From positions 8,656 through 45,537 of the forward strand of contig SWDR01000025.1 of NCBI GenBank assembly GCA_005116815.1: a stretch of 36,882 bases of DNA. Reading direction: 5' to 3'. This DNA is from Nitrospira sp. GTDB lineage: Bacteria; Nitrospirota; Nitrospiria; Nitrospirales; Nitrospiraceae. Positions within the stretch are counted from its first letter, which is position 1, and every line of letters starts with the position of its first letter. Of this stretch, positions 3,265 through 36,005 are shown piece after piece. A program made the position numbers and the translations under genes. Below the pieces are notes generated by a model. That model did no database searches. It had not been told where the DNA came from and worked only from the letters and a program-made list of their open reading frames with translations.

Positions 3265-4143
3265 ATGCTCGAAACCAAATTTAAGATTGTGTTCTTGCTG
3301 GCCGTTCTCGCGTTTGCGGCACTTCCCATCATGGGAATTATTCGTGGCACGACGCTCACCCCGTTCGAAGCAGCTTCCCCTGATTCCACCGATTCGTCCT
3401 CACCTGAGCCGCTGGATTCCTCGCAGGTTTCTCGTGAAGAGCCGGTTCGGGAAGAGATGATCTCAATCCCGGCAGGGCCTTTCATTCGGGGGACCGATCA
3501 CGGAGGATTCGATGAACGGCCGCAGCGCACGTTGGTGCTCGATGCGTTTGCGATCGATCGGTACGAAGTCACGAATTTTCAATATCAGCAATTCGTCGAT
3601 GCGACCGGCCATCGTAAGTCTGGCCCTCCTTCCCGTTACGCCAAGAACATGAGCAAGATGCGCGGCATGAATCAGCCTGTGGTGTACGTGTCATGGGACG
3701 ATGCGGAGACATTTTGCCATTGGAAGGGAAAGCGGCTTCCCACCGAGGCTGAGTGGGAGAAAGCGATGAGGGGAACGGATGGCCGTCTCTGGCCCTGGGG
3801 CAACGTGGAGCAGCCTAATGGAGCGAATTGGGCCAGGGTGCAGGATGGCTTCGAGGTCGCAGCGCCGGTCGGTGCCTTCCTGCCCGATACGAGCCCGTAT
3901 GGCGTCATGGATGGGGCGGGAAACGTGATGGAATGGGTTAGTGACTGGTATGCGGAGACCTACTTCAAGGAAGCGCCTGAACAAAACCCTCAGAGCCCTG
4001 AATATGGCACCTTTCGGGCGCTCCGAGGGGGAGGATACGCGACCACAGGGGCTGATATTCGTATCACCAGCCGGAGCAAGATGGTGCAGGACTTTCGCGA
4101 TGAAACTATTGGATTTCGCTGTGCGGTTTCAGGTGTGAAATGA
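3265..4143 (+). CDS. Membrane-anchored SUMF1/FGE-fold protein, second copy
   Basis: 292 residues with the same layout as its upstream neighbour: N-terminal hydrophobic anchor (about 5-25), a Ser/Pro/Glu-rich linker (about 35-60), then the SUMF1-type domain (MISIPAGPFIRGT, RLPTEAEWEKAMRG, YGVMDGAGNVMEWVSDW, ALRGGGY, IGFRCA). The stretch after the RGGG motif (ATTGADIRITSRSKM) again lacks the two cysteines of genuine FGE. The pair probably arose by tandem duplication and may act as a heterodimer, possibly in assembly of the neighbouring oxidase; that is inference from position only. No clear Shine-Dalgarno is seen, so coupling to the upstream stop (5 bp away) is likely. Confidence 0.83.
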   Translation: MLETKFKIVFLLAVLAFAALPIMGIIRGTTLTPFEAASPDSTDSSSPEPLDSSQVSREEPVREEMISIPAGPFIRGTDHGGFDERPQRTLVLDAFAIDRYEVTNFQYQQFVDATGHRKSGPPSRYAKNMSKMRGMNQPVVYVSWDDAETFCHWKGKRLPTEAEWEKAMRGTDGRLWPWGNVEQPNGANWARVQDGFEVAAPVGAFLPDTSPYGVMDGAGNVMEWVSDWYAETYFKEAPEQNPQSPEYGTFRALRGGGYATTGADIRITSRSKMVQDFRDETIGFRCAVSGVK

Positions 4144-4210
4144 GCGCGGAACTGGAGCCTGAAACCGAAAGAAATCTACAACAAATCAAAGTGGTAGAGA
4201 ATGAGGAACA

Positions 4211-4252
4211 CGGCCAAAATTATATTGACAACCATTCCGGCCAAAACTATAA
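4211..4252 (+). repeat. Two direct repeats overlapping the oxidase promoter
   Basis: CGGCCAAAATTATA (4211-4224) and CGGCCAAAACTATA (4239-4252) differ at one base and start 28 bp apart. The first lies just upstream of the -35 box; the second fills the end of the spacer and most of the -10 box. This spacing could serve a dimeric repressor or activator, or could be chance; no known operator consensus is recognised. Confidence 0.5.
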
Positions 4253-4253
4253 T
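4225..4253 (+). promoter_or_regulatory. Consensus sigma70 promoter of the oxidase operon
   Basis: TTGACA (4225-4230), 17-bp spacer, TATAAT (4248-4253): a perfect match to the housekeeping consensus with ideal spacing. The start of transcription would be near 4260, leaving a leader of about 140 nt before the first microprotein start at 4403. It lies in a locally A/T-rich stretch after the second SUMF1-like gene, so it separates the upstream unit from the complete oxidase operon. Confidence 0.8.
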
Positions 4254-4402
4254 GTCGAACACTTTTGAGTTTGCAATCATCGATTTTCCCCTGATATTTC
4301 GTGTGCGGCAAAGAATTTTGAATAACATATGAATATCTGTGTGTCAAGAATTCGCTGAGCTGAATTAGGCGCGTATTATTTCCATCAGGAGAAGGAGACA
4401 CG

Positions 4403-4525
4403 ATGGCAACAGCAGAAGTAGATAGCGAGTTTAAGGTTAAGGTCGGTCGGATGATTTTCTACATTACCTGCGCGGCAGGTTTGTGGTTTTTTTATTGGTT
4501 CGCAGGAATTCAGTGCCCCTGCTAG
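4403..4525 (+). CDS. 40-residue single-helix membrane microprotein A
   Basis: ATG at 4403 follows a purine-rich GGAGAAGGAG (4388-4397) ribosome site. The peptide has a charged 16-residue head (MATAEVDSEFKVKVGR), one hydrophobic helix of about 20 residues rich in aromatic residues (FFYWF), and a CPC tail at the very end. It is the first gene after the strong promoter and is followed by a second microprotein and the oxidase. By analogy with small subunits such as CydX or CcoQ it may be an accessory subunit of the oxidase; the terminal Cys-Pro-Cys could bind metal or form a disulfide. No homology to a named family is recognised. Confidence 0.6.
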   Translation: MATAEVDSEFKVKVGRMIFYITCAAGLWFFYWFAGIQCPC

Positions 4526-4587
4526 GAGAGGGCCGCTGTTTTTCTGGGATTTCTTGAACGTCTGCAAGTTGTGAGGGAGGGATTCTC

Positions 4588-4710
4588 ATGGGTCAGACAA
4601 TCGTTTATGTGGTGGTGTCGCTCGTTATTTGCGTCGCCTACTTCACGGCAGTGGATCACTTTTTGATGGATTCGCAGGGGCTGGACTTCTGGTATTTGTT
4701 CCGGAAGTAG
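4588..4710 (+). CDS. 40-residue single-helix membrane microprotein B
   Basis: ATG at 4588 is preceded by GAGGGAGGGA (4573-4582). The peptide starts directly with a hydrophobic helix (about residues 4-22, IVYVVVSLVICVAYF) and ends with a short soluble tail (DFWYLFRK). The TM followed by a VD motif faintly recalls the last helix of SecE, but the protein is far too short for that to be convincing. It lies 62 bp after microprotein A and 81 bp before the oxidase start, which suggests a small structural subunit of the oxidase complex. Function is inferred from position only. Confidence 0.6.
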   Translation: MGQTIVYVVVSLVICVAYFTAVDHFLMDSQGLDFWYLFRK

Positions 4711-4791
4711 GTTCTGGGTCTATTCTGTGCTGAGTTGAGTTTGCGGGGAATTGTGATGAGTCTTTTCCGGAATGCATTAAGGAGGTATCCC

Positions 4792-6705
4792 ATGGGTTTA
4801 GTGGCTGGGAAGAAGCTGTTCTCAATCATGGCGCTTTGCGCGATGATTGGCCTTCTCCTGCTCCCCATCGCTGTATCGCTTCCAACACTGGCTATGGGCG
4901 CGGATGCGCCTGATGCGGTGAAAAAGGATGGTGAGGCGAAGGTCGAGAAGGGGAGAGACGTTTATTATAAGACCGAGGGTATCGTTGCCGGCGCTCCTGC
5001 TCCGAAGACGGTCGATGGTCCTCGGGATTATCCGCGATACAACTTCGAGAGTCGCGTGTTGCTTTGGTTCGCAAATCAGCAGCACCTCTATTACGGAAGT
5101 TTTGTACTCGCGGTTCCGATTTTCTGCATGGTCATCGAGTTCATGGGAGTGGTGACGAAGGATAAGGCGATGGCCAAGCGGTATGACCAGTTGGCCTACG
5201 ACTTCATCAAGATCAGTTTGACGGCCTATTCGCTGACCGCCATTCTCGGTGGTATCCTGATCTTCACCTTCCTGACTCTCTATCCTGCCTTCTTCGGTTA
5301 CTTATCCAGCATCTTCCGCCCAGTCATGCATATCTATGCATTGATGTTCGTTGCGGAGAGCGGAACCCTCTACATCTATTATTACGGCTGGGACAAGATG
5401 CGGGAAGGGTTCCTCAAGTGGATTCACTTGAGCATGTCCGTAATTTTGAACGTGATCGGGACGTTGCTCATGTTCCTGGCGAATTCCTGGATCGGGTTCA
5501 TGATGTCGCCTGCCGGTGTCGATGAGCAGGGGCGCTATCTTGGGAACATCTGGCACGTCATTCATACCGCGCTCTGGAATCCGCTCAATGTGCATCGCAT
5601 TTTGGGTAACATGGCGTTCGGCGGTGGTGTCGTGGCGGCCTATGCGGCGTACAAGTTCTTGGCCTCCAAGACCGATGAGGATCGTGCGCACTATGATTGG
5701 ATGGGTTATATCGCCATGGCGCTCGGCGTGGCGTTCTTGATCCCCTTGCCATTTGCCGGGTATTGGCTGATGCGTGAAGTGTATGCCTATCGTCAACAGA
5801 TGGGTATTACCCTCATGGGCGGTCTTCTGGCTTGGCTCTTCATCATTCAGGCTACGATGATCGGCATTCTCTTCCTCAGCACCAACTACTATCTCTGGCA
5901 GGCTCTCGGCCGGATGCGTGGCGCCGAGAAGTATCAACGCTACATCAAGTATCTCGTGTTCGTCCTCTGTTGCGGCTACCTGGTGTTCATTACTCCTCAC
6001 ACGATCGTCATGACTCCCGCTGAGCTCAAGGCGATGGGTGGCCAGCAGCACCCGGTGTTGGGGAACTATGGCGTTATGTCGGCTAAGAACGGCGGCATCA
6101 ACGTCATTATTACGACCACCATTCTGAGCTTCGTGTGGTACATGCGAGGCAACAAGGTTTCGACGGTATCCTGGTCGAAATTTGGCAATATCTTCATGGG
6201 CTGCTTCTTCGGTTGCGCCTATGTGAATATCGTCGGACTCGCGGTCCTGGGATATTATATTCCGGCAAACGTGCGAGTCGGTCTATCGGTTCCTCAGGTG
6301 GCGACGACCCTATCCTGCCTCTTCTTCATGTTTGCGCTCAACAGCTTCATGATGAAGGGTGCAAAGCAGATGGGCCCCATCGAGTGGGGGAAGATCTCGG
6401 CTCGTTCGCAATATGCGTTAATCATGCTCGCGACGGCCTTTACTTGGATGATGGGGTTGATGGGGTATATTCGCTCATCGGTCCGATTGTTCTGGCACGT
6501 GAATGAGATTATGCGCGACAACTCACCTTGGGCCTATACCCATACGGTGGGATTTGCCGCAAATATGATTTCATTCAATGTGTTGTTCTTCTGGATCAGC
6601 ATTCTCTTTGTCTTCTGGCTGGGCAGCCTTGGGATAAAGAAGGCGCCAGTTGAAGCAAAGGCAGGGGTCCCTGGTGGGGCTGCACAGCCGGCTGGGAGCC
6701 ACTGA
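4792..6705 (+). CDS. Cytochrome bd-like terminal oxidase, complete copy
   Basis: 637 residues. The ATG at 4792 is chosen because TAAGGAGGT lies 7 nt upstream; a TTG at 4735 would add an unlikely leader. An N-terminal hydrophobic signal-like segment ends near AMGADA (about residue 36), followed by a short periplasmic part and about a dozen transmembrane helices. Candidate heme or metal ligands shared with CydA-like proteins or with the first copy include H98 (NQQHLYYG), H180 and E189 (MHIYALMFVAESGTL), H212, H255 and H258 (WHVIHTALWNPLNVHR), TPHTIVM, QHPVLGNYG and FWHVNEI. In Nitrospira such proteins are proposed to reduce O2 at the end of nitrite oxidation, perhaps fed by cytochrome c rather than quinol; the c-type cytochromes downstream fit that idea. 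No CydB-like subunit is present here. Confidence 0.9.
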   Translation: MGLVAGKKLFSIMALCAMIGLLLLPIAVSLPTLAMGADAPDAVKKDGEAKVEKGRDVYYKTEGIVAGAPAPKTVDGPRDYPRYNFESRVLLWFANQQHLYYGSFVLAVPIFCMVIEFMGVVTKDKAMAKRYDQLAYDFIKISLTAYSLTAILGGILIFTFLTLYPAFFGYLSSIFRPVMHIYALMFVAESGTLYIYYYGWDKMREGFLKWIHLSMSVILNVIGTLLMFLANSWIGFMMSPAGVDEQGRYLGNIWHVIHTALWNPLNVHRILGNMAFGGGVVAAYAAYKFLASKTDEDRAHYDWMGYIAMALGVAFLIPLPFAGYWLMREVYAYRQQMGITLMGGLLAWLFIIQATMIGILFLSTNYYLWQALGRMRGAEKYQRYIKYLVFVLCCGYLVFITPHTIVMTPAELKAMGGQQHPVLGNYGVMSAKNGGINVIITTTILSFVWYMRGNKVSTVSWSKFGNIFMGCFFGCAYVNIVGLAVLGYYIPANVRVGLSVPQVATTLSCLFFMFALNSFMMKGAKQMGPIEWGKISARSQYALIMLATAFTWMMGLMGYIRSSVRLFWHVNEIMRDNSPWAYTHTVGFAANMISFNVLFFWISILFVFWLGSLGIKKAPVEAKAGVPGGAAQPAGSH

Positions 6706-6729
6706 TCATCTTTAGGATCTTGCTTGGGG

Positions 6730-6760
6730 GAGTGGAGGCGCGTCGTACGTGCCTCCGCTC
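6730..6760 (+). promoter_or_regulatory. Intercistronic RNA hairpin, no U-tract
   Basis: Left arm 6730-6742 and right arm 6748-6760 pair over 13 bp with two G-U wobbles around a 5-nt loop (TCGTA). There is no T-run after it, so it is not a classical terminator. It sits between the oxidase stop and the ribosome site of the next gene, where such hairpins often set transcript stability and relative expression. Confidence 0.5.
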
Positions 6761-6787
6761 TTACCAAAACCTCAGGAGGTTACAATC

Positions 6788-8101
6788 GTGGGCGATCTGA
6801 TAAACGAAGCGATTTCAATAGGGTGGCCGCTGTTCGCGCTGCTGGCGGGGCTTCTCGTGTATTCCCTGGTATCGATTAGCGATCCTGTGGCAAAAAAACG
6901 CGCAACCTTCAAGCTCTTTATTGGCATCATTGCATCCTTCATGCTGATGGTGGCAATTGCGCATTATAAGACCAGCTTTTATGAAGCAAATCGAATGTTG
7001 CCAGTTTCTCTAGTTCTTATTACCTCGATGTGCTTCATGATGGGGATCTACTTCCCCAATCAAGCTGCTTTGCTCAAGATCGGCGGCTTCATGTTCTTGG
7101 TTGCTGCTGGCCTATCAGGGTATGGCAATTGGTTGCCGCAGGTCGAAGGTGGGTTTCCTCCGAAAGAAGAGAAGCTTCAGTATGAGGCAATGACCTCGCA
7201 GCAGTTGGCTGACGAAGGCGAAAAGATCATCTTCGGAGGGATTGGGCAAAATAAGGTTCAGGGCGCAATTGGGAAAGGGCAATGTCCTCTTTGTCATGCG
7301 TTCCACAAGGGAATGCTGGGGGAGCGAGCGCCGAACCTTGACGGTATTCCTGAGCGTGCAGGTAAGGAGCGGCTGGAAGATCCAAAGTACAGCAAGGGGA
7401 AGCCTGCAGGTAGAGACTATGCTCAGAAGGAAGCATTTCCTGGAGCGGGCACCGCAGAGAATGGCCAAGAGTATATCGCTGAGTCCCATTCCTGCCCGAG
7501 CTGTTACGTTGTTGCCGGCTTCGGCGTCAAGGGTACAAACGATAAAGAAAGCCCAATGCCTGCCATCCACAAGCCACCGATCTCGCTGAGTCTCCCAGAG
7601 TTAGCGGCTGTTGATACGTGGCTCTATATCCGCGAAGGGCGAGACGCTCCGACATACGAAGAGATCGTGAAGTCGTATGAGAAGTTTATTCCGGAGGCTG
7701 ACCGTCCGAAGCAGCAGGAAGAGAAGGCTGCCGGGCCGGCAAGTGCCTTGATGGCGGATGGAACCGAGCCGGTAGACCAGATTTTTGCGAAGGCGCAGTG
7801 CGTGGCCTGCCATACGATTCCTGGTATTCCAGGGGCGGTCGGTACGATTGGTCCTAAGCTCGAAGAAGGCACGAATGCTCCTCTTCGCATCAAGGACAAG
7901 GACTATAAGGGAACGGCCAAGACAGTTCCAGATTACATTATGGAGTCGATCGTTTCGCCTAGTGCCTATGTGGTGAAGCCATTCCCGGATAATACGATGC
8001 CGAAGGTGTTCGGGCAGAAGCTCAGCGCCGGGGCGCTCAAGAAGATCGTCGACTATCTGTCGCAGGTGAAGGCGGGATCGCCACCACCGAAGATTTCATA
8101 A
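6788..8101 (+). CDS. Membrane-anchored diheme cytochrome c of the oxidase operon
   Basis: 437 residues. The GTG at 6788 is chosen because CAGGAGGT ends 7 nt before it. Four transmembrane helices (to about residue 115) are followed by two cytochrome c domains. Heme motifs are CPLCH (166-170) and CVACH (338-342). Each domain carries the same distal segment (ESHSCPSCYVVAGF and ESIVSPSAYVVKPF) followed by a possible Met ligand in an MP motif, typical of class I cytochrome c. The first domain has two extra Cys (236, 239) in that segment. The likely job is to pass electrons on the periplasmic face to the oxidase encoded just upstream. Confidence 0.85.
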   Translation: MGDLINEAISIGWPLFALLAGLLVYSLVSISDPVAKKRATFKLFIGIIASFMLMVAIAHYKTSFYEANRMLPVSLVLITSMCFMMGIYFPNQAALLKIGGFMFLVAAGLSGYGNWLPQVEGGFPPKEEKLQYEAMTSQQLADEGEKIIFGGIGQNKVQGAIGKGQCPLCHAFHKGMLGERAPNLDGIPERAGKERLEDPKYSKGKPAGRDYAQKEAFPGAGTAENGQEYIAESHSCPSCYVVAGFGVKGTNDKESPMPAIHKPPISLSLPELAAVDTWLYIREGRDAPTYEEIVKSYEKFIPEADRPKQQEEKAAGPASALMADGTEPVDQIFAKAQCVACHTIPGIPGAVGTIGPKLEEGTNAPLRIKDKDYKGTAKTVPDYIMESIVSPSAYVVKPFPDNTMPKVFGQKLSAGALKKIVDYLSQVKAGSPPPKIS

Positions 8102-8144
8102 TCGTGTCTGTCTACCTCTTTTGTTCAGCAAAGGGAGTTTGCCG

Positions 8145-9182
8145 ATGAAAGCATTAATGTCAGTCGCGGCACTCATAGGAGCAGTTGGGATACTCCTGCT
8201 TGCCGGAATGATTGTCGATATCATTCCGTCAAATACGGTGCGCCTGGTCGAAGGTTACATGCCCATGCAAGTGCTCTTTGAGCTCACGCTGTTTGTCGCG
8301 GGCTTTACAGGGCTCAGTTACATGTTGGGTTCCATGGGAATGGCGGTCCCTCGCTTCTGGCAGGGGATTTTATTCTGGTCGTTCATTCTCCTGTATTTGA
8401 AATATCGGGTCTATCCGCCGATTCCGTTCAGCGTTCGGGCTATGTACGGAACCGTCTCCCTCATAGCTGTGTTTATGTGGGTTTCCGCGAACGAAGAAGA
8501 TTGGAAGAAGTTTAAGCAGCCGATCATGAACATTTTGGATGCCCAGACCGGGGCAAACAAATTACTACGTTATGCCTATCTAGTTCTGTTGCCCATTCTG
8601 ATCGGCGGGTTCTCCTACAACGCGATGGTGCCGAAGTCGGAGGAGCCCATCGAGTTGCGCACGGTGCATCCTGCGCCCCCGGCCAGCACCAAGGTGCATG
8701 GTAAGACGTATACACTTCAAACGTCGCAGAATCCCTATCGTGTCAACCTCGAAGGGAAGTTCGATCAGGAATATAGCAACGCGAATATTGTGGAGCAGGG
8801 CATGGGCCGGTTGATGAAGCCGAACGCCAATCCCTGGGATAAAGATGCTCAGGGTTATCTGAAGTATGTGCGTGAGGGAGGAGAAATCTTCTTCCAAAAC
8901 TGCCACTTCTGCCACGGCGATAACTTGAACGGTCGCGGCCTCCATGCATTCGCATTCAATCCAATTCCTGCGAACTTTACGGATCCGGGAACGATTGCAC
9001 AATTACAGGAAACGTTTATTTTCTGGCGCGTCTCCAAGGGTGGAATCGGGTTGCCCAACGAAGGCTTTCCCTGGGCCTCAGTGATGCCACCGTGGGAACA
9101 GCATCTGACTGTAGATGAAATCTGGAAAGTGATCTTGTTCGAATATTGGCATACGGGGTATTACCCCCGAACCTGGGACTAA
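8145..9182 (+). CDS. Membrane-anchored monoheme cytochrome c of the oxidase operon
   Basis: 345 residues. The ATG at 8145 has AAGGGAG 7 nt upstream and is preferred over a TTG at 8121. About five transmembrane helices (residues 1-165) precede a periplasmic cytochrome c domain with CHFCH at 253-257 and a possible axial Met near the VMPPWEQHL segment. The domain keeps the usual GDNLNGRG and final LTVDEIWKVILFEY helix. It lies 43 bp after the diheme cytochrome and 50 bp before the c-c-EbdC fusion protein, so the three probably form one electron-transfer module with the oxidase. Confidence 0.83.
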   Translation: MKALMSVAALIGAVGILLLAGMIVDIIPSNTVRLVEGYMPMQVLFELTLFVAGFTGLSYMLGSMGMAVPRFWQGILFWSFILLYLKYRVYPPIPFSVRAMYGTVSLIAVFMWVSANEEDWKKFKQPIMNILDAQTGANKLLRYAYLVLLPILIGGFSYNAMVPKSEEPIELRTVHPAPPASTKVHGKTYTLQTSQNPYRVNLEGKFDQEYSNANIVEQGMGRLMKPNANPWDKDAQGYLKYVREGGEIFFQNCHFCHGDNLNGRGLHAFAFNPIPANFTDPGTIAQLQETFIFWRVSKGGIGLPNEGFPWASVMPPWEQHLTVDEIWKVILFEYWHTGYYPRTWD

Positions 9183-14584: not shown

Positions 14585-15748
14585 ATGAATTTTTCAGTGC
14601 TGCAGGAAGATCGTAAGACGAGTGCGCGGTTGGGGAGACTCAGCACCGCCCATGGTGCTATCGACACGCCGGCCTTCATGCCGGTTGGCACGTTGGGGCC
14701 AGTGAAAGGGATCGACCCCGCCGATCTCGAGCAGCTCGGCTTTGGTCTGATGCTGAACAACGCGTACCACCTCTATCTGCGGCCTGGACACAAGATTATA
14801 GCTGAGATGGGCGGGTTACATCGTTTCACGGGGTGGCCCGGAGCGATCTTGACGGATAGCGGTGGATTTCAGATTTTCAGTCTCGCCAAATTGTGCAAGG
14901 TCTCGGATGAAGGCGTGAGTTTTCAGTCGCATCTCGATGGGTCCACGCATTTCATCTCACCGGAGACGGCCATCGAGATCGAGGAGGCGCTGGGGGCCGA
15001 TATCATGATGGCGTTCGATCATTGTGTGGCCTTGCCGGCTGAAAAAGAGGTAGTGCGGGATGCGGTGCGACGGACCACCCTCTGGGCGAAACGCTGTCAG
15101 GACAGTCGGCGTCGCACGGATCAAGCCCTCTTCGGAATTGTGCAAGGCGGGTTGGACGCAGAGCTCCGCGTCACGTCCGCACGCGACCTCGTCGGGCTTG
15201 GCTTCGAGGGGTATGCGGTCGGGGGGCTCTCGGTGGGAGAATCGAAGGCCGAGATGCATGCCATGTTGGATGTGACGGTGCCGGAGCTGCCGACTGCAAA
15301 GCCTCGCTATTTGATGGGCGTCGGGATGCCGGAGGACTTGATCGAAGGCGTTGCTCGGGGGATCGATCTCTTCGATTGTGTCGTGCCGTCTCGCCATGGG
15401 CGGACCGGCTCGCTGTTTACCAGTTTTGGGCGAGTGGTGATCAAGCAAGCGCGGTATATCCGTGATGAGCAGCCGATCGATCCGGCTTGCGGCTGTCCGG
15501 TCTGCGCACGCTACTCGCGGGCCTATCTGCATCACCTTTACCAGGTGAAAGAAATGTTGTCGTCGAGACTGAATACGATCCACAATCTCTGGTATTTTGC
15601 CGAGCTGATGGGCCAGATACGGTCAGCGATCGCACAGGGGACGTTGCAGTCGTTCCGGGACGAGTTCTACCGATCCCGGGCGGCATCGGACGTGTCCGCG
15701 ATCGACGTGGCTGAGGCTGATATTCACCGGCATGCCAGGTTGGACTAA
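14585..15748 (+). CDS. tgt: tRNA-guanine transglycosylase
   Basis: 387 residues. The enzyme exchanges guanine-34 of tRNA-Asp, -Asn, -His and -Tyr for the queuosine precursor preQ1. Visible signatures: TPAFMPVGTLGPVKG, the catalytic region DSGGFQIFSLAKL, GIVQGGLDAELR, the nucleophile region FDCVVPSRHGRTG, and the zinc site C-x-C-x2-C with a downstream His (CGCPVCARYSRAYLHHL to NTIHN). AAGGGA lies 5 nt before the ATG. It follows argS by 15 bp and precedes yajC-secD-secF, a common bacterial arrangement (tgt-yajC-secD-secF). Confidence 0.96.
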   Translation: MNFSVLQEDRKTSARLGRLSTAHGAIDTPAFMPVGTLGPVKGIDPADLEQLGFGLMLNNAYHLYLRPGHKIIAEMGGLHRFTGWPGAILTDSGGFQIFSLAKLCKVSDEGVSFQSHLDGSTHFISPETAIEIEEALGADIMMAFDHCVALPAEKEVVRDAVRRTTLWAKRCQDSRRRTDQALFGIVQGGLDAELRVTSARDLVGLGFEGYAVGGLSVGESKAEMHAMLDVTVPELPTAKPRYLMGVGMPEDLIEGVARGIDLFDCVVPSRHGRTGSLFTSFGRVVIKQARYIRDEQPIDPACGCPVCARYSRAYLHHLYQVKEMLSSRLNTIHNLWYFAELMGQIRSAIAQGTLQSFRDEFYRSRAASDVSAIDVAEADIHRHARLD

Positions 15749-15773
15749 CCCTGTCGAGGAGGACGCTGTTCGC

Positions 15774-16118
15774 ATGGTAATGCAATCGGTCGCATGGGCT
15801 CAAGGAATCGGTGGTGGAGGGGCGAGTTCGAGCTCCGGGACGCTCTTGTCTCTCATTCCGTTTGCGCTGATCTTCGTGATTTTTTACTTCCTGCTCATTT
15901 TGCCGCAGCAAAAACGCGCGAAACAGCAGAAGGCCTTGCTGGAGGCCCTGAAGAAGGGCGACAAGGTGATCACGGGGTCGGGCATCTGGGGGACCGTGAC
16001 GAATCTCGGGAAAGAGACGGTGACGCTGCAGATCGCCGATAGTGCCAAGATCCGGATACAACGGGAGCACATCGCTCGATTGCGCGCCGACGATGAAGAC
16101 AAGGATAAGGATTCGTAG
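15774..16118 (+). CDS. yajC: Sec translocon accessory protein YajC
   Basis: 114 residues with one membrane helix (SLIPFALIFVIFYFLLILP) followed by the family's QQKRAKQQKALLEALKKGD and a small beta domain (VITGSGIWGTVTNL). YajC associates with SecD and SecF in the inner membrane. The start at 15774 is preferred because GAGGAGGA (15756-15763) lies 10 nt upstream; an ATG at 15732 overlaps the end of tgt. The C-terminus is highly charged (DEDKDKDS). Confidence 0.93.
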   Translation: MVMQSVAWAQGIGGGGASSSSGTLLSLIPFALIFVIFYFLLILPQQKRAKQQKALLEALKKGDKVITGSGIWGTVTNLGKETVTLQIADSAKIRIQREHIARLRADDEDKDKDS

Positions 16119-16148: not shown

Positions 16149-17792
16149 ATGAAAAAAGTGGGTGGGCGGTTAACATTGCTGGCGTTGGTGGTCGTCGTAT
16201 CGGTGATCTTTTTCATCCCGTCCTATCAGCCGTTCTATCAGGCCCTGCCTGGCTGGCTGAAGAACGTGATGCCGAACAAAGGGATTACCCTGGGGCTGGA
16301 TCTTCAAGGCGGGATTCATCTCGTCATGGAAGTGGACGAAGATCGTGCGGTCGAAATCGCCGTCGATCGTTCGGTCGTGTCGCTGCAAGACTTGTTGGTC
16401 GATAAGAAAATTCCCGTCGAGTCTGTGACCAGGACGGGACCGACCCAGGTCACGATCCAATTCCAAAATGCCGAACTCAAGGCGCAGATCCAGAAGATGC
16501 TCGACGACTATCCGACCTTCACCGAGACGGAGTCCGCGGGGTCGGCGAATAAGCTGGTGTGGGAGTTGCGCGATATAGAGGTCAAGCGGATTAAGGATTC
16601 CGCGATCAACCAGGCCTTGGAAACGATCCGGAACCGCATCGACCAGTTCGGCGTGGCCGAGCCGATGGTGCAACGGCAGGGGCTGAAGCAAATCGTCGTG
16701 CAGCTGCCCGGCGTCAAAGAGCCCAAGCGCGCCAAGGATTTGATCAAAGAGACGGCCTTGCTCGAGTTTAAAATGCTCGACGAGGACAACCAGCTGAAGC
16801 TCGATCTGCCGGCCCGCATTCCGAAAGAAAAAGAAGCGGACATTCTCAGGGAAGCCGAGGCGAAGTTGCCAGTCGGCGATCAAATTCTTTTCGAACGTGC
16901 GGTCGACAAAGACACCGGGCGCGAATACCGGATTCCCTATCTCGTGAAAAAGCGGGTCATGTTGACCGGCGATGTGTTGAGCGATGCGCGGGTGTCGATC
17001 GGTCAATTCAACGATCCCTACGTCTCGATCAGCTTTGACGCCAAGGGAGGTCGAGAGTTCGAACGGATCACGGGCGACAACGTCAAGAAGCGCATGGCCG
17101 TGGTGCTCGACAACACGATCTACTCGGCTCCGGTCATTCAGGAACGTATTACCGGGGGGCGCGCGCAAATTACCGGGACGTTCTCGATGCAAGAGGCTAG
17201 CGACCTGGCCATCGTTCTTCGGGCCGGCGCCCTGCCGGCTCCGCTCAAGATCATTCAAGATCTCACCGTCGGACCGTCGTTGGGGAAGGACTCGATCGAC
17301 AAAGGCATCCAGGCCACGTTGTTTGCCGGAGCACTGGTGGTCCTGTTCATGATGGTCTATTACCGGACGTCCGGGGTGATTGCGGACTTTGCGCTGGCGC
17401 TGAATTTGCTCTGTCTCATGGGGGCCCTTTCTGCGCTGAACGCCACCTTGACCCTGCCGGGCATTGCCGGAATTGTGCTTACGATCGGAATGGGCGTCGA
17501 TTCAAACGTCCTGATCTTCGAGCGTATCCGCGAAGAGCTGCGACTCGGGAAAGCGGTCAGGCTTGCGGTGGATGGTGGATACGATAAGGCGATGTTGACG
17601 ATTGTCGACTCGCACGTGACCACGCTGATCACCGGAGTGGCGCTGTTTCTCTTCGGTACGGGGCCGATCAAAGGATTTGCCGTGACCTTGTGTCTCGGCA
17701 TCGGGATCAATCTGTTTACCGCCCTGGTGGGCACGAAGGTCATCTTCGACCTTATGAATCAACGACACAAAGTCGAACAGTTAAGCATCTAG
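16149..17792 (+). CDS. secD: Protein-export membrane protein SecD
   Basis: 547 residues, full length. SecD uses the proton gradient, together with SecF, to assist late steps of Sec export. It has one N-terminal helix, then the LGLDLQGGIHLVMEV motif, a large periplasmic P1 region, and a C-terminal block of about five helices with the conserved GMGVDSNVLIFERIREE in helix 4. It lies 30 bp after yajC and 15 bp before the secF start. SecD is intact here, which contrasts with its truncated partner. Confidence 0.96.
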   Translation: MKKVGGRLTLLALVVVVSVIFFIPSYQPFYQALPGWLKNVMPNKGITLGLDLQGGIHLVMEVDEDRAVEIAVDRSVVSLQDLLVDKKIPVESVTRTGPTQVTIQFQNAELKAQIQKMLDDYPTFTETESAGSANKLVWELRDIEVKRIKDSAINQALETIRNRIDQFGVAEPMVQRQGLKQIVVQLPGVKEPKRAKDLIKETALLEFKMLDEDNQLKLDLPARIPKEKEADILREAEAKLPVGDQILFERAVDKDTGREYRIPYLVKKRVMLTGDVLSDARVSIGQFNDPYVSISFDAKGGREFERITGDNVKKRMAVVLDNTIYSAPVIQERITGGRAQITGTFSMQEASDLAIVLRAGALPAPLKIIQDLTVGPSLGKDSIDKGIQATLFAGALVVLFMMVYYRTSGVIADFALALNLLCLMGALSALNATLTLPGIAGIVLTIGMGVDSNVLIFERIREELRLGKAVRLAVDGGYDKAMLTIVDSHVTTLITGVALFLFGTGPIKGFAVTLCLGIGINLFTALVGTKVIFDLMNQRHKVEQLSI

Positions 17793-17807: not shown

Positions 17808-18262
17808 ATGTTAGAGATTCTTGGAAAAACAAATTTCGATTTCATGGGGAAGCGCCGTTTCGCCTTTCTGTTTTCCGGCATCATGGTGGTGCTGGGGATT
17901 GTGGCGGTCGTTCAGATCGCGAGAGGGTCGGCGAACCTCGGCATCGACTTCGCGGGCGGGACTGCGGTCCAGCTGAAGTTCGAGCAAGCGATTCGAATCG
18001 ACGAAGCTCGAAAAGTGTTGGAAGCCAACGGCCTGGGCAACGCCGAGTTGCAAGAGTTCGGTCAGGAGAACAAACTCCTGATCCGTCTGAAGGCCTCGAC
18101 GACCATTGAAGAGAAAGTTGCCGAGCGGGTCGTGGCGGTCTTCACAAAGGAATTTCCCGCGAACCATTTCGTGGTGGATTCCAGCACGGAAATCGGACCG
18201 ACTATCGGACATAAATTACAAGAGGACGCCCTCATCGCGATCCTCATTTCCTTTGCCGGGGC
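17808..18262 (+). pseudogene. secF: secF 5' remnant (truncated)
   Basis: The first ~150 residues are SecF: N-terminal helix (about 16-36), LGIDFAGGTAVQLKF, the periplasmic domain, then IGPTIGHKLQEDALIAILIS at the start of helix 2. Normal SecF (about 300 residues) continues with four more helices containing a second conserved VVVFDRIRE-type motif; none of that is present. The reading frame runs without a stop into sensor-kinase sequence at about 18258-18265. GAAGGAG precedes the ATG. The SecF part alone should not function. Confidence 0.85.
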
Positions 18263-20633
18263 CCTTCGAGGGCTGAAAGCCGGCTGGTCCTTGGTGGCGG
18301 ACGATTCCCATGGAAGCCGGAATGCCTTGATCGGGTTCGCGCCGGTCCGATTCGGCGAGAGCTTGGTCTCTGGGAGCCTCGGCGGAAAACAATGGATCAC
18401 CGTGGTGCGGCAGGATCCCCAGGAGACCTATGCGCCGCTTGCCGAACTCGTCGCGAAAGTACTGCTCTACGGGTTGCTGGTCCTGGCTGTGCTCTGGGGA
18501 ACTGGAGTGGTGGTGGCTAGGCGGATTGCCCGCCCCATTCAGCTGTTACACGACGGGGTGCGTGAAATCGGAAGCGGACGATTGGACCGGCGGCTCGAGC
18601 TGAAGACCGGAGATGAAATTGAAGGGCTCGCCGATGCGTTCAATCAGATGGCAACGAACCTCCAACGATCGTTTGCGCAGATCGAGCAGCGGGTGGTGGA
18701 TGTCCATCGCCTGGAGGAGAAGTATCGCGATTTGATCGAACATTCTCCGGAGATGATCTATCAATTGAACCGGAGCGGCCGCTTCGTCCATGTGAACAAG
18801 ACGGGGCTCGAGAAGCTGAAATATACTCTTGATGAAATGCTGTCGATGAAGCTGTGGGAGCTGGTGCCGCGAGGGCAGGAGCCACTCGTCTTGCAGTACT
18901 TAGAACGATTAGTGGCACAGGGGCGCAGTTCGATCGAGACGGTGTTCGTGGCAAAAGACGGTCACCCGATCGATGTGGAAATTCATGCCACAGCATTGAT
19001 CGATCAAGAACGAGGCGGGCTGGTGCACTCACGCGCCTTTGTGCGCGACGTGACCGAACGGCGCCGGCTTGAGCAGCAGTTGCAGGAATATACGACGAAG
19101 CTCGAGACGGCGGTGTCGGAGCGGACCCAGCAGCTCGTGGCCTCGCAGGCTCGCTACAAGGCGCTGTTCGACTTGGTGGCCGACTCGGTCTTTATGGTGG
19201 ATCCGAGCGGAATGATCGTGGCCGTCAATAAACGCGAGGAGCAAGCGCTGGGGTATGCAGAGGCGAACGTGGTCGGCCGCAGTCTGCTCGAAGTGGTGCT
19301 CGCCGGTTATCACGATTCGTTACGCGGATGGCTGAGCGACATCATTACGGGGCAGCGGAAAGTGCCGACCCAGGAGATCATGGTGCGCCATGCCGACGGG
19401 CTGGAAACTCCGGCTGAAATGGATTTGATCCGAGTTGGAGTGGCAGATAAGCTCTTGGTGATGGTGCAGTTACGGGACATCACCGATCGGAAGGCGCTCG
19501 AACGGCAGTTGGAGACGTACCGAGAGGAGTTGGAAGATAAGGTCCGAGAACGCACGCGTGAAATCGAAGAGACCAAACAGTATCTTGAGAATCTGCTCGA
19601 GAACGCGAACGATGTCATCTATACCCTCGATACCGAGCAGCGGTTTACCTATGTGAACAGCAAGGTCGAAGCGTGGGGTTATCGGAAGGACGATCTGATC
19701 GGGCGCCCATACCTTGCGCTGCTCTCCAAGCGCCATCGGGGGAAGCGTCTCAAGAGCACTCTGGATATCGGTGCGAAGCAGGTGTATGAGGTTGAAGTGG
19801 TGACGCGCACAGGGGAGCCGAGGGCGGTCATGGTGAGTGTCTCGCCCCTGCACGATGTCGAGGGTGCGATACTTGGTGTCTTGGGCATTGCGCGAGATAT
19901 GACCGAGACCAAGAAGTTGGAGCAGCAGATCAGGAATTCCGAGAAGCTGGCCTCGGTCGGAAGGCTCGCCGCAGGGGTGGCCCACGAAATCAATAATCCC
20001 CTCGGCGGCATCCTCAACTGTCTCTACAACTTGAGGAAAGGGACGCTGTCGCCGGGCCGGCAAGAGGAATATCGGGTGTCGATGGAGGATGGCGTGCGGC
20101 GCGTGCAAAAGATTGTCCGGCAGCTTCTCGATTTTTCCCAGCAGCATGAGCCGGAGTTTGCGCTGACGGATATCAATCACGTCGTCGATCGGGTGTTGGT
20201 CTTGACGACGCATCTCTTTGCCCCGAACCGAATCCGGTTGGAGACGGTACTCGGACAGGGGCTGCCGAATGTGATGATCGACCAGCACATGATCGAGCAG
20301 GTGCTGATGAATTTGGTCTTGAATGCGGTGCATGCGATGAAGGACGGCGGGGCGCTGACGATTCGAACCTCTGTGGTCGAAGGAGTCTGCCTGGTCGAAG
20401 TGCGCGATACGGGATCGGGCATTCCGCCGGCGGTTCTGCCGAGGATTTTCGATCCTTTCTTTACGACGAAGAGCGAAGGTGAAGGGACCGGTCTCGGCTT
20501 GTCGGTCAGTCTCGGTATCGTCGAGCGCCACGGCGGAAAGATCGTGGTGGATAGTGAGGTCGGGAAAGGGACGACCTTTACCCTCTATCTTCCTGTATCG
20601 AGAGAACGTTCGTTGTTGGAGAGGGTGTCATGA
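17808..20633 (+). CDS. SecF N-terminus fused in frame to a PAS sensor histidine kinase
   Basis: 941 residues. Residues 1 to about 152 are SecF. From there the sequence is a membrane sensor kinase lacking its own N-terminus: the end of a periplasmic dCache-like sensor (WITVVRQDPQETYAPL), a transmembrane helix (about 220-240), HAMP (about 236-292), three PAS domains (about 305-420, 445-560, 595-705) separated by coiled linkers, HisKA with H726 in AAGVAHEINNPLGG, and HATPase_c with N box (LMNLVLNAVHAM), DTGSGIPP, FDPFFTTK and GTGLGLS. The kinase core is complete. The SecF second helix would place the Cache fragment on the wrong side of the membrane, so the fusion is either non-functional or an artefact. 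It is coupled by ATGA to the response regulator. Confidence 0.85.
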   Translation: MLEILGKTNFDFMGKRRFAFLFSGIMVVLGIVAVVQIARGSANLGIDFAGGTAVQLKFEQAIRIDEARKVLEANGLGNAELQEFGQENKLLIRLKASTTIEEKVAERVVAVFTKEFPANHFVVDSSTEIGPTIGHKLQEDALIAILISFAGALRGLKAGWSLVADDSHGSRNALIGFAPVRFGESLVSGSLGGKQWITVVRQDPQETYAPLAELVAKVLLYGLLVLAVLWGTGVVVARRIARPIQLLHDGVREIGSGRLDRRLELKTGDEIEGLADAFNQMATNLQRSFAQIEQRVVDVHRLEEKYRDLIEHSPEMIYQLNRSGRFVHVNKTGLEKLKYTLDEMLSMKLWELVPRGQEPLVLQYLERLVAQGRSSIETVFVAKDGHPIDVEIHATALIDQERGGLVHSRAFVRDVTERRRLEQQLQEYTTKLETAVSERTQQLVASQARYKALFDLVADSVFMVDPSGMIVAVNKREEQALGYAEANVVGRSLLEVVLAGYHDSLRGWLSDIITGQRKVPTQEIMVRHADGLETPAEMDLIRVGVADKLLVMVQLRDITDRKALERQLETYREELEDKVRERTREIEETKQYLENLLENANDVIYTLDTEQRFTYVNSKVEAWGYRKDDLIGRPYLALLSKRHRGKRLKSTLDIGAKQVYEVEVVTRTGEPRAVMVSVSPLHDVEGAILGVLGIARDMTETKKLEQQIRNSEKLASVGRLAAGVAHEINNPLGGILNCLYNLRKGTLSPGRQEEYRVSMEDGVRRVQKIVRQLLDFSQQHEPEFALTDINHVVDRVLVLTTHLFAPNRIRLETVLGQGLPNVMIDQHMIEQVLMNLVLNAVHAMKDGGALTIRTSVVEGVCLVEVRDTGSGIPPAVLPRIFDPFFTTKSEGEGTGLGLSVSLGIVERHGGKIVVDSEVGKGTTFTLYLPVSRERSLLERVS

Positions 20634-22069
20634 AGGGGCTGAAGATTCTGCTCGTTGATGATGAGCCGCTGATGCGGCTTTCGATGGTCGATGCGTTGGA
20701 AGCGGTTGGCCATGACGTCTTGGCGGCGGCATCCGGGACGGAGGGGATCGACGCCGTTCGTCAGCGGCCATTCGATCTGGTGATCACCGATCTCCGGCTG
20801 CCCGGCGCAGATGGATTGACGGTGTTGGCTGCGACGAAAGAGCAATCGGCCCAGACGGAGGTCGTGGTGATTACGGCCCACGGGTCGGTGGAGACGGCGG
20901 TCGGCGCCATGAAACTCGGCGCGTTCGACTACATCACCAAACCGTTTCAGATGGACGAATTGCTGTTGATCGTCGAGCGTGCAGGCCGTGTGGTGGCGTT
21001 GCGGCGAGAGAATCAGGATCTCAAGGAGGCATTGGAGCACAAGTTCAGCTTCGGGGGCATCCTCGGCACCAACAATCAAATGCGTGCGGTACTTGAGAAA
21101 ATAAAATTGGTGGCAGGGACGGATTCGACCACGTTGATTTTGGGAGAGAGCGGCACGGGCAAGGAGTTGGTCGCCAATGCCATTCACCAAAACAGCGCTA
21201 GAAGCCAGTATCCGTTGATCAAGGTGAGTTGTGCGGCGTTGCCGGAAACCCTCTTGGAAGCGGAACTATTCGGTCATGAGAAGGGGGCCTTCACTGGAGC
21301 GATGAAGCAGCGGCGTGGGCGATTTGAACTGGCGCATCGAGGTACGTTATTCCTCGACGAAATCGGTGAAATCTCGCCGATCATCCAAGTGAAATTGCTG
21401 AGGGTGCTACAAGAAAGGCAGTTTGAGCGTGTGGGAGGGAACGACACGATCGACGTCGACGTGCGTCTGGTGTGTGCGACCCAGAGGGATCTTCGAAAAG
21501 AAGTGTCTCAGGGGCGGTTCCGGGAAGATTTGTTCTACCGGCTCAATGTCGTGCCCATCGTGATTCCGCCGTTACGCCAGCGGCAGGAAGATATCATGGT
21601 CATCGGGGAGCATGTGTTGAAGGTCTGTTCCGCCAAGATGAATAAGACGGTGAAGGGGTTTTCTTCCGCCGCGCGTGAGCTCTTCTTGCGGTACTCATTT
21701 CCCGGGAACGTGCGGGAATTGGAGAACATGGTTGAACGTGCGGTGGCGTTGGGACGGGATCGCGAACCGATTCAACCGTCTGATCTGTGCGGGTTTCAGT
21801 CCTGTCCCTATACGGGCGGGGTGCCGCAAGAGTCCTGTGGATTTTGTAGCGAAGGGCTGACGGGGCAGAAGCGCGAGGAGCGTCCACTGACCTCGCTGGC
21901 GACGGCGCGTGAACAGTTTGAGAAAGAATATATTGTGTCGGTGTTGGCGCGGGTGGAAGGCAGCCGCACGACCGGTGCGAAGATTCTCGGCCTTTCGCGG
22001 AAAGCTCTCTGGGAAAAGTGCAAGCGCTACGGCATTCCGTCGGCCAAAGACGAACCGGAGGAGGTCTAG
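20630..22069 (+). CDS. NtrC-family sigma54-dependent response regulator
   Basis: 479 residues: receiver domain (about 1-120; phospho-acceptor Asp in LVITDLRLPGADG, conserved VVITAHGS and ITKPF), AAA+ ATPase (about 140-375; Walker A GESGTGKE near 171, GAFTGA at 219-224 for sigma54 contact, Walker B GTLFLDEIGEI), and a C-terminal Fis-type helix-turn-helix (TGAKILGLSRKALWEKCKRYG). Between ATPase and HTH is an unusual cysteine-rich linker (about 387-411) with a CX4CX10CX2C pattern. The start overlaps the kinase stop (ATGA), so the two are a cognate pair. Targets are sigma54 promoters, not identified here. Confidence 0.93.
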   Translation: MKGLKILLVDDEPLMRLSMVDALEAVGHDVLAAASGTEGIDAVRQRPFDLVITDLRLPGADGLTVLAATKEQSAQTEVVVITAHGSVETAVGAMKLGAFDYITKPFQMDELLLIVERAGRVVALRRENQDLKEALEHKFSFGGILGTNNQMRAVLEKIKLVAGTDSTTLILGESGTGKELVANAIHQNSARSQYPLIKVSCAALPETLLEAELFGHEKGAFTGAMKQRRGRFELAHRGTLFLDEIGEISPIIQVKLLRVLQERQFERVGGNDTIDVDVRLVCATQRDLRKEVSQGRFREDLFYRLNVVPIVIPPLRQRQEDIMVIGEHVLKVCSAKMNKTVKGFSSAARELFLRYSFPGNVRELENMVERAVALGRDREPIQPSDLCGFQSCPYTGGVPQESCGFCSEGLTGQKREERPLTSLATAREQFEKEYIVSVLARVEGSRTTGAKILGLSRKALWEKCKRYGIPSAKDEPEEV

Positions 22070-33154: not shown

Positions 33155-33985
33155 ATGGTGCGTACGACGACGAAGATGGCTTCCCGCCCGTTACTGCTGT
33201 TGTTCCTCTTCATCCTGGTGACCGCCGGCCTCTTCGTGGGTTTCGACGTGCCCCTCGTCAGTTCCGAGGGCATGATGATTCGAGCGCGCCTCGTTGAGGG
33301 GGAGCTGCCGGCGGGCCCCGAGGATGCAGCATGGGCCAAGGTCGCGCCGATGACCCTTCCCTTGAGCGGTCAGGTCATTACCAGGCCGGTTTGGCCTGAA
33401 CCGACCGCACGAGCCCTCACGGTACGATCGCTCCACAACGGCACCGAAATCGCCTTTCTGCTGGAATGGCAGGACAACACTAAAAATGACCGTCTGACGC
33501 CAGGGACCTTTCGCGACGGTGTTGCGATCGGGCTGCCCCTCGGCGATGCGCCCGCGTTTTTCTGCATGGGCCAACTCGATCACTACATCAACATCTGGCA
33601 TTGGAAGGCCGATTGGCAGAGCGATATCGATCGCCGGGCCGCCAAGACGTCTGAAAAAGCCAAAGACGGCGTGCGGACATTTGAAGTCATTCCGCGCCGG
33701 GTCTCTTCCGTCGAGGATCTCATCGGCGGAGGCTTTAGCACGCTGACGACCAAAGAAAAGCAGGGGCGAGTGCAAGGGAAGGCGACCTGGAAAGATGGGG
33801 TTTGGCATGTCGTCATGCGCAGGCCGTTGGTGAGTGAAGAGCAAGAGAATGAAGCCAAGCTGATTCCAGGCCGGGTGCAAACCGTGTCGTTTGCCGTCTG
33901 GAACGGCGAGAACAAAGAGCGGAACGGGCAAAAGGCTGTCGCGCCCTGGTTCCAACTGGTGATTGATCCTATTGTAAAACTCTGA
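33155..33985 (+). CDS. Second NxrC-like exported protein (EbdC family)
   Basis: 276 residues. The ATG at 33155 is chosen: GAGGA lies 6 nt upstream and the protein begins with a basic head and signal helix (RPLLLLFLFILVTAGLFVGF). The rest is the same EbdC-like fold as the 26424 protein but shorter, lacking its central insert of about 45 residues. Shared landmarks: PLSGQVITRPV, LEWQDNTKNDR, CMGQ, SSVEDL, GGFSTLTT and FAVWNG. Met138 is kept, but the presumed heme-ligand Lys is replaced by Arg222 (WHVVMRRPL). It could bind heme b with altered ligation or be a heme-free structural paralog. Confidence 0.82.
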   Translation: MVRTTTKMASRPLLLLFLFILVTAGLFVGFDVPLVSSEGMMIRARLVEGELPAGPEDAAWAKVAPMTLPLSGQVITRPVWPEPTARALTVRSLHNGTEIAFLLEWQDNTKNDRLTPGTFRDGVAIGLPLGDAPAFFCMGQLDHYINIWHWKADWQSDIDRRAAKTSEKAKDGVRTFEVIPRRVSSVEDLIGGGFSTLTTKEKQGRVQGKATWKDGVWHVVMRRPLVSEEQENEAKLIPGRVQTVSFAVWNGENKERNGQKAVAPWFQLVIDPIVKL

Positions 33986-34021
33986 GTTTTTTAGTGGGAT
34001 GGTTGTAGAAAGGCACGAACG

Positions 34022-35814: not shown

Positions 35815-35815
35815 C

Positions 35816-35944
35816 AGTCTGGTCTGTTTGGTTGATCTGGTTTGTCTAGTTTCTTTGGTTCGATGGACGAAAAGAACGAGATACATCAAACAAACTAGAT
35901 GAACCAGATAGACCAGATGAACCAAATAACCAGACAGACCAATT
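35816..35944. repeat. Imperfect inverted repeat built from TCTGGTT-like units
   Basis: Immediately after the cytochrome stop, TGGTT/TCTGG-type units (35816-35862) are followed by complementary CCAGA/AACCA-type units (35886-35944). GGTCTGTTTGGTT pairs with AACCAGACAGACC at 12 of 13 positions, and a second block of about 19 bp (ending at TCTAGTTT) pairs with about three mismatches. The right arm carries extra units. It can fold into a long hairpin in the 190-bp gap before the next cytochrome gene. Confidence 0.65.
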
Positions 35945-36005
35945 GAACAAGGCGCACCGGCTGACATTGTTGCAGTCTGACGAAAAGCCAAAACAGAAGG
36001 ATCGG

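What the first reader, a model, noticed from the sequence alone, without database searches (positions are those of the whole stretch)
17808..18500. SecF truncated and fused in frame to a sensor histidine kinase
The sequence shows an open frame that begins as normal SecF up to the second helix and changes at about 18258-18265 into the end of a dCache sensor, a TM helix, HAMP, three PAS domains and a kinase core. Four SecF helices and the kinase N-terminus are missing. SecD and YajC upstream are intact. The membrane topology of the hybrid does not work well (the Cache remnant would face the cytoplasm). It is either a recent deletion joining neighbouring genes, a new protein, or an assembly artefact.
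Basis: partly seen in the sequence, partly recalled or inferred. Interest (0 to 1): 0.8.

Follow-up and report, generated by a model that had tools for sequence, protein, structure and literature searches.

The report
SecF–kinase fusion, probably an assembly join
In this Nitrospira draft genome a protein-export gene (secF) is cut short and joined to the back part of a neighbouring sensor-kinase gene, but no fused version was seen in the relatives examined and the same draft genome has other such abrupt joins, one of which cuts the DNA ligase gene, so the fusion is more likely an assembly error than a new protein.

Summary
Window 17808-20633 is one open frame of 941 codons: SecF residues 1-151, then, from the 18260|18261 junction, the last 790 residues of a HAMP/PAS/HisKA/HATPase kinase. 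In the nearest relative held (L042, about 95.6% DNA identity on both sides) secF and a dCache kinase gene are separate and whole, and 1,433 bp absent from the window lie between the joined points. Of the 80 best related loci, 70 have the two genes side by side, 3 are cut by a contig end, 7 lack secF on the piece held, 0 are fused. The junction word is in 1 of 32 genus genomes, this one. The 71.6%-complete bin shows no second SecF and not the missing DNA. It has 9 other blunt N-free joins in long frames in 367 kb, two of them also in frame, one cutting ligA; a relative pair shows 2 in 332 kb (P = 0.04). Both halves show no relaxed selection. Best reading: assembly join (0.68). Rival: a recent real deletion (0.27). 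A working hybrid is unlikely (0.03).

The parts
15732..16118 (+). yajC, intact
   Evidence: TIGR00739, 94.0 bits over cut-off 44.2
16149..17792 (+). secD, intact, 547 aa
   Evidence: TIGR01129, 467.5 bits over cut-off 244.4
17808..18260 (+). 5' part of secF, codons 1-151: helix 1, first periplasmic domain with the GG motif, first half of helix 2
   Evidence: TIGR00966 positions 1-135 of 279 and Sec_GG; 95.8% DNA identity to the secF of L042 over the first 450 bases
18260..18261 (+). junction; 1,433 bp of the L042 arrangement absent here (end of secF, intergenic DNA, start of the kinase gene)
   Evidence: junction word in 1 of 32 genus genomes
18261..20633 (+). 3' part of the kinase gene, kinase residues 270-1059: last stretch of the extracytoplasmic part, TM helix, HAMP, three PAS, HisKA, HATPase_c
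   Evidence: Pfam; intact copy with dCache_1 46-272 in L042; 96.2% DNA identity
20630..22069 (+). NtrC-type response regulator (receiver, sigma-54 activation, HTH_8) downstream of the kinase, intact
   Evidence: Pfam; same order in L042

Best explanation
The fusion is a join made during assembly of this metagenome bin. The cell's real chromosome probably carries a complete secF followed by a complete dCache sensor-kinase gene and its NtrC-type regulator, as in related Nitrospira; the draft has lost about 1.43 kb between the middle of secF and the end of the kinase's Cache region and has butted the two ends together without Ns. That the frame stays open is a one-in-three coincidence. Shown: the arrangement in relatives, the exact missing piece, that it was not found elsewhere in the bin, and other blunt joins in the same bin. 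Inferred: that the joins come from assembly and not from the organism.
For: 0 of 80 related loci are fused, 70 have both genes side by side; the junction word is in 1 of 32 genus genomes. Compared with G011, 366.7 kb of this bin (contigs C15, C18, C21) show 11 blunt N-free joins; 10 lie in long frames (at least 180 codons on one side). Of those 10, 6 also show as joins against G017 by the same rule and a seventh (C21:64467) by inspection of the G017 positions; 3 were compared with G011 only. One (C15:78383) cuts ligA after 164 of its 697 codons, the rest not being on the three contigs held; the start of the abstract of PMC3397958, seen in the listing, speaks of the indispensable role of NAD-dependent DNA ligase in replication. 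Three of 6 same-strand joins are in frame, no more than chance (P = 0.32). Control by the same rule: G017 against G011 has 4 joins in 332 kb, 2 in long frames; the 19 nearest loci have 0 in 67 kb (against G011) and 0 in 95 kb (against G017). Long-frame joins: 10 in 367 kb against 2 in 332 kb, P = 0.040, or against 2 in 400 kb with the 19 loci added, P = 0.017. The bin is 71.56% complete in 81 contigs and the three contigs examined carry 100-N gaps. Window-branch substitutions are 4 synonymous and 0 replacing in the SecF part, 20 and 2 in the kinase part, against 18 and 2 in secD.
Against: No reads or coverage could be examined. Counting joins of every kind, 11 in 367 kb against 4 in 332 kb is not significant (P = 0.12), nor against 4 in 400 kb (P = 0.065); the long-frame class was defined after the joins had been seen. 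Identity to L042, G009 and G011 is alike on both sides, so it is not a chimera of two species (against G017 it is 92.8% and 94.8%). The junction has no long shared word that would explain a usual assembly-graph error. At the ligA join the other side (a CorC/GldE-type gene) is only 68% identical in protein to G011's, so that place may differ for other reasons too; a second ligA in the rest of the bin was not searched for.
Confidence: 0.68

Rival explanations
1. A real, recent 1.43-kb deletion in this population or strain joined secF to the kinase gene by end-joining with almost no shared sequence. It removed SecF from the middle of helix 2 on and the kinase's first helix and dCache domain, so SecF function and the sensor are both lost; the hybrid is a by-product.
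For: Clean join, no N, equal identity to L042 on both sides (95.65% and 95.61%); no relaxed selection, as expected of a young deletion; SecDF depletion is described as causing cold sensitivity and precursor accumulation (passages of PMC8082313), so loss may be survivable; natural deletions and insertions in genes occur between relatives (2 long-frame joins in 332 kb of G017 against G011); another Nitrospira bin (G018) also has a broken secF-kinase locus.
Against: SecF is over cut-off in 27 of 32 genus genomes and no other of the 32 has the junction; the same bin has 9 other blunt joins in long frames, one cutting ligA, and it is hard to see all of them tolerated.
Confidence: 0.27
2. A working hybrid receptor: SecF's first periplasmic domain, anchored by helix 1, replaces the Cache sensor and reports Sec traffic through the kinase to the NtrC-type regulator next door.
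For: Frame open; kinase core and regulator intact; both halves show few replacing changes; topology would work if the half helix does not insert (KD 1.58).
Against: Single occurrence; SecF would be lost as a translocase subunit although secD and yajC are kept; the low replacing count is equally explained by youth or artefact.
Confidence: 0.03

Closest known systems
SecF (TIGR00966), subunit of SecDF-YajC
   Same: Residues 1-151: helix 1, first periplasmic domain, GG motif, start of helix 2
   Different: Lacks the rest: 135 of 279 model positions, 88.2 bits against a cut-off of 160; no SecD_SecF_C match at E 0.001, which the intact copy has at 198.8 bits
dCache-HAMP-PAS-PAS-PAS histidine kinase encoded between secF and an NtrC-type regulator in Nitrospira
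   Same: HAMP, three PAS, HisKA, HATPase_c at the same positions relative to the C-terminus
   Different: First 269 residues (TM1 and nearly all of dCache_1) missing
Local assembly errors and joins in metagenome-assembled genomes (PMC7111523, passages seen)
   Same: Incomplete or incorrect protein-coding genes at joins in a bin with scaffold gaps
   Different: That paper calls chimeras of two organisms rare and identifies errors by missing read support, which I could not test; here both sides look to come from the same organism

Membership tests
SecF (TIGR00966 / SecD_SecF_C) | Full-length score over the curated cut-off (160 bits) | tested here: not met
   88.2 bits, positions 1-135 of 279; 86.9 bits in the genome search
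SecF (TIGR00966 / SecD_SecF_C) | GG motif in the first periplasmic domain after helix 1 | tested here: met
   Sec_GG 24.7 bits over 20.3
HAMP/PAS sensor histidine kinase | HAMP, HisKA and HATPase_c over Pfam cut-offs | tested here: met
   58.1, 49.3 and 101.5 bits
dCache sensor kinase | Extracytoplasmic dCache_1 domain between two TM helices | tested here: not met
   No dCache_1 match at E 0.001 in the window protein; 73.5 bits at 46-272 in the intact relative
Assembly join in a metagenome bin | Arrangement absent from relatives | tested here: met
   0 of 80 loci fused; junction in 1 of 32 genus genomes
Assembly join in a metagenome bin | Excess of joins of the same kind in the same assembly | tested here: inconclusive
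   Long-frame joins 10 in 367 kb against 2 in 332 kb, P = 0.04; all joins 11 against 4, P = 0.12
Assembly join in a metagenome bin | No reads or read pairs support the join | not testable with these tools
   No reads held

The most novel reading that the evidence does not exclude
The deletion is real and created a hybrid receptor in which SecF's first periplasmic domain feeds a PAS-PAS-PAS kinase and its NtrC-type regulator, turning part of the export machine into a sensor of export.
Probability: 0.03. Interest if true: 0.7.

Novelty: not a real feature. Interest (0 to 1): 0.12.

Why it matters
As a warning: an in-frame, well-conserved and domain-rich 'new fusion protein' can come from a blunt join in a draft bin, and databases may hold it as a real protein. 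If the joins found are typical, this bin carries some tens of them (10 in 367 kb scales to about 54 in 1.97 Mb), so gene losses and fusions read from it should be checked against relatives. If the join were real, it would be a natural SecF-loss strain with intact secD and yajC.

Tried and rejected
A second SecF in the bin: family search of the own genome gave the truncated copy, two stretches of SecD and a place on C54 at 12.5 bits. The missing 1.43 kb elsewhere in the bin: only the two flanks matched well; other matches were 41 bases or shorter with E of 0.12 or more. Scaffold gap inside the fusion: rejected, no N in the window. Chimera of two species: not favoured, identity alike on both sides to L042, G009 and G011, though 92.8% and 94.8% to G017. 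Repeat-mediated collapse: no shared word over 3 bases at the junction. In-frame bias as a sign of selection: 3 of 6, P = 0.32. The 24-29 kb missing at another join (C15:25045): 18 kb of it from G017 found no match in the bin at E 1e-60 (the tool warns that an empty answer without a control shows nothing). Literature: no paper in the library held secDF, histidine kinase and Nitrospira together. One search used a wrong kinase frame and is replaced. The first controls used other length and identity limits; one search repeats them by one rule and gives weaker figures (P = 0.04 and 0.017 in place of 0.007), for which I lowered the artefact reading from 0.72 to 0.68 and raised the deletion from 0.24 to 0.27. 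Fisher tests on all joins were not significant (P = 0.11, 0.19, 0.12 and 0.065). Rows left out of the count of 10: C18:7667 (intergenic, G017 agrees with the bin) and C15:208940 against G017 (end of a G017 contig). Structure prediction was not used, since a fold of the hybrid would not separate artefact from deletion.

Full report
What is there. The frame 17808-20633 on the + strand is open for 941 codons. Its start is SecF: TIGR00966 positions 1-135 of 279, with the GG motif. From codon 152 on it is the C-terminal part of a sensor kinase with HAMP, three PAS stretches, HisKA and HATPase_c. yajC and secD before it, and an NtrC-type response regulator after it, are intact.

What it looks like in relatives. 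There secF is 4124-5041 (305 aa) and the kinase 5203-8382 (1059 aa, with dCache_1 at 46-272). The window aligns to L042 at 95.65% over 4,576 bases up to 18260 and at 95.61% over 6,200 bases from 18257; 1,433 bp of L042 are absent. G009, G011 and G017 show the same with 1,440 bp, counting the few bases that align on both sides. The search for related loci confirmed 191 relatives and kept the best 80. Of these 80, 70 have the two genes side by side in separate frames (secF aligned from residue 20 or before to 290 or beyond, the kinase from residue 60 or before; the kinase's far end was not required, and L118 and L121, for example, run off a contig end); 3 are adjacent but cut by a contig end, 7 have no secF on the piece held, and none is fused. 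The 70 include the complete chromosomes of N. moscoviensis (L070) and Ca. N. defluvii (L094) and the chromosome record of isolate UBC2 (L092). In a genus search SecF is over the family cut-off in 27 of 32 genomes; the five without are G000 itself, G018, G044, G014 and G003. The junction word is found in G000 alone of the 32.

Is the rest elsewhere? The own genome (71.56% complete, 81 contigs) has no other SecF over or near the cut-off and the missing DNA is not found in it beyond the two flanks. The 27 genomes mostly show one SecF (G047 has three pieces, G010 one more short piece), so a second copy in the unseen part is not expected, but it is not excluded.

How the junction is built. The window reads ...TTTGCCGGG|GCCCTTCG...; in L042 the left parent continues with ATCATT and the right parent is preceded by CATCGGT. 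The two share no exact word longer than CGG there. It is a blunt join without N, in an assembly whose examined contigs otherwise carry 100-N gaps; the window itself is exactly the stretch between two such gaps.

Is this assembly sound elsewhere? Three contigs (518 kb) were compared with the parts of relatives that I had fetched. Against G011, 366.7 kb of the bin could be aligned and showed 11 N-free joins with at most 30 bases between the parts and a displacement of at least 500 bases; one (C18:7667) is intergenic and G017 agrees with the bin there. The other 10 lie in long frames of G011: secF/kinase; C15:25045, tldD to a 269-aa frame with no family match, in frame; C15:32875, two response-regulator genes, in frame, about 1.33 kb missing; C15:48115, an RtcB-like gene; C15:78383, a CorC/GldE-type gene to ligA; C15:108273, a shikimate-kinase-type gene to a 16S rRNA methyltransferase (rsmI-type) gene; C15:204208, a hydroxyacid-dehydrogenase gene; C15:218153, a gspN gene; C21:60480, a 325-aa frame; C21:64467, a radical-SAM gene to a polysaccharide-deacetylase-type gene. 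A family match at E 1e-15 lies on both sides in 5 of the 10, counting secF/kinase; at C21:60480 the join is at the very end of the right-hand gene, so only the left frame is cut. Six of the 10 are also joins against G017 by the same rule and a seventh by inspection; three were compared with G011 only. ligA is cut after 164 of 697 codons and its rest is not on the three contigs held; the remainder of the bin was not searched for it, and the other side of that join is only 68% identical in protein.

Controls. By the same rule G017 against G011 gave 4 joins in 332 kb, 2 in long frames; the reverse gave one, at the end of a reference contig. The 19 nearest other loci gave 0 joins in 67 kb (against G011) and 0 in 95 kb (against G017) (with laxer limits 0 in 161 and 173 kb). 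Long-frame joins are commoner in the bin (10 in 367 kb against 2 in 332 kb, P = 0.040; with the 19 loci added, 2 in 400 kb, P = 0.017); all joins taken together are not significantly so (11 against 4, P = 0.12 and 0.065). The long-frame class was chosen after the joins were seen, and the control stretches were picked because they match the bin.

Age and selection. Taking codons where G009 and G017 agree, the window branch has 4 synonymous and 0 replacing substitutions in the SecF part, 20 and 2 in the kinase part, 18 and 2 in secD and 23 and 1 in the regulator. If three quarters of unselected changes were replacing (a rule of thumb, recalled), 2 or fewer of 26 would have a probability of about 7e-13. 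Nearly all changes therefore arose while both genes were under normal selection: the join is very young, or it does not exist in the cell, or (least likely) both halves are still constrained.

Topology. Hydropathy puts helices at 19-37 and 218-236 and a marginal one at 141-159 (1.58, against 2.19 for the intact SecF helix). With the marginal segment inserted the kinase would face outward; without it the kinase would be cytoplasmic (inference).

Judgement. The fusion is real in the sequence and single among the relatives examined. The simplest account that also covers the other joins, above all the one through ligA, is an assembly join (0.68). A real recent deletion remains possible (0.27); SecDF depletion is described as causing cold sensitivity and precursor accumulation (passages of PMC8082313), so loss of SecF could be survivable. 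A functional hybrid has no positive support (0.03). [quoted passage not shown]

Noticed in passing
L163:9525-9645 (G000:C15, about 129.5 kb): A dispersed repeat of about 120 bp whose ends are near-perfect inverted repeats (ggatgctcaaacaggc ... gcctgtttcagcatcc); some 40 matches listed in each of G009, G011 and G017, with scored candidates capped at 40 per genome; absent at the collinear place in G011 and G017; no Rfam match at E 0.1. Looks like a small mobile or palindromic element.
   Followed up: partly
L120:5827-7752 and L152:3346-3597 (G018, Nitrospira sp. CG24E): A second broken secF-kinase locus: the kinase gene lacks its first 476 residues and follows a stretch resembling the dispersed repeat, while secD lies on another scaffold shortly before a 100-N gap and no secF over cut-off is found in this 98%-complete bin. 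Misassembly or rearrangement, not resolved.
   Followed up: partly
window 17808-22069: The order secF-dCache kinase is conserved in Nitrospira (70 of 80 loci), in L042 with secD before and an NtrC-type regulator after, which hints at a functional link between SecDF and this two-component system; no paper in the library holds secDF, histidine kinase and Nitrospira together.
   Followed up: no
window 33983-34008 and 35812-36005: Intergenic length differences from G017 and G011 (about 205 bp shorter than G017 at the first place; mixed at the second).
   Followed up: no
G000 contigs C15 and C21 (L157-L176, L246-L248): Nine further blunt joins in long frames, including in-frame fusions of tldD with another frame (C15:25045) and of two response-regulator genes (C15:32875), and a ligA cut after 164 codons (C15:78383).
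   Followed up: yes
L113:1-910: A kinase gene of the same family with about 900 bp of DNA between it and the contig start in which no secF was found by tblastn at E 1e-30 or seen in the three forward frames.
   Followed up: no
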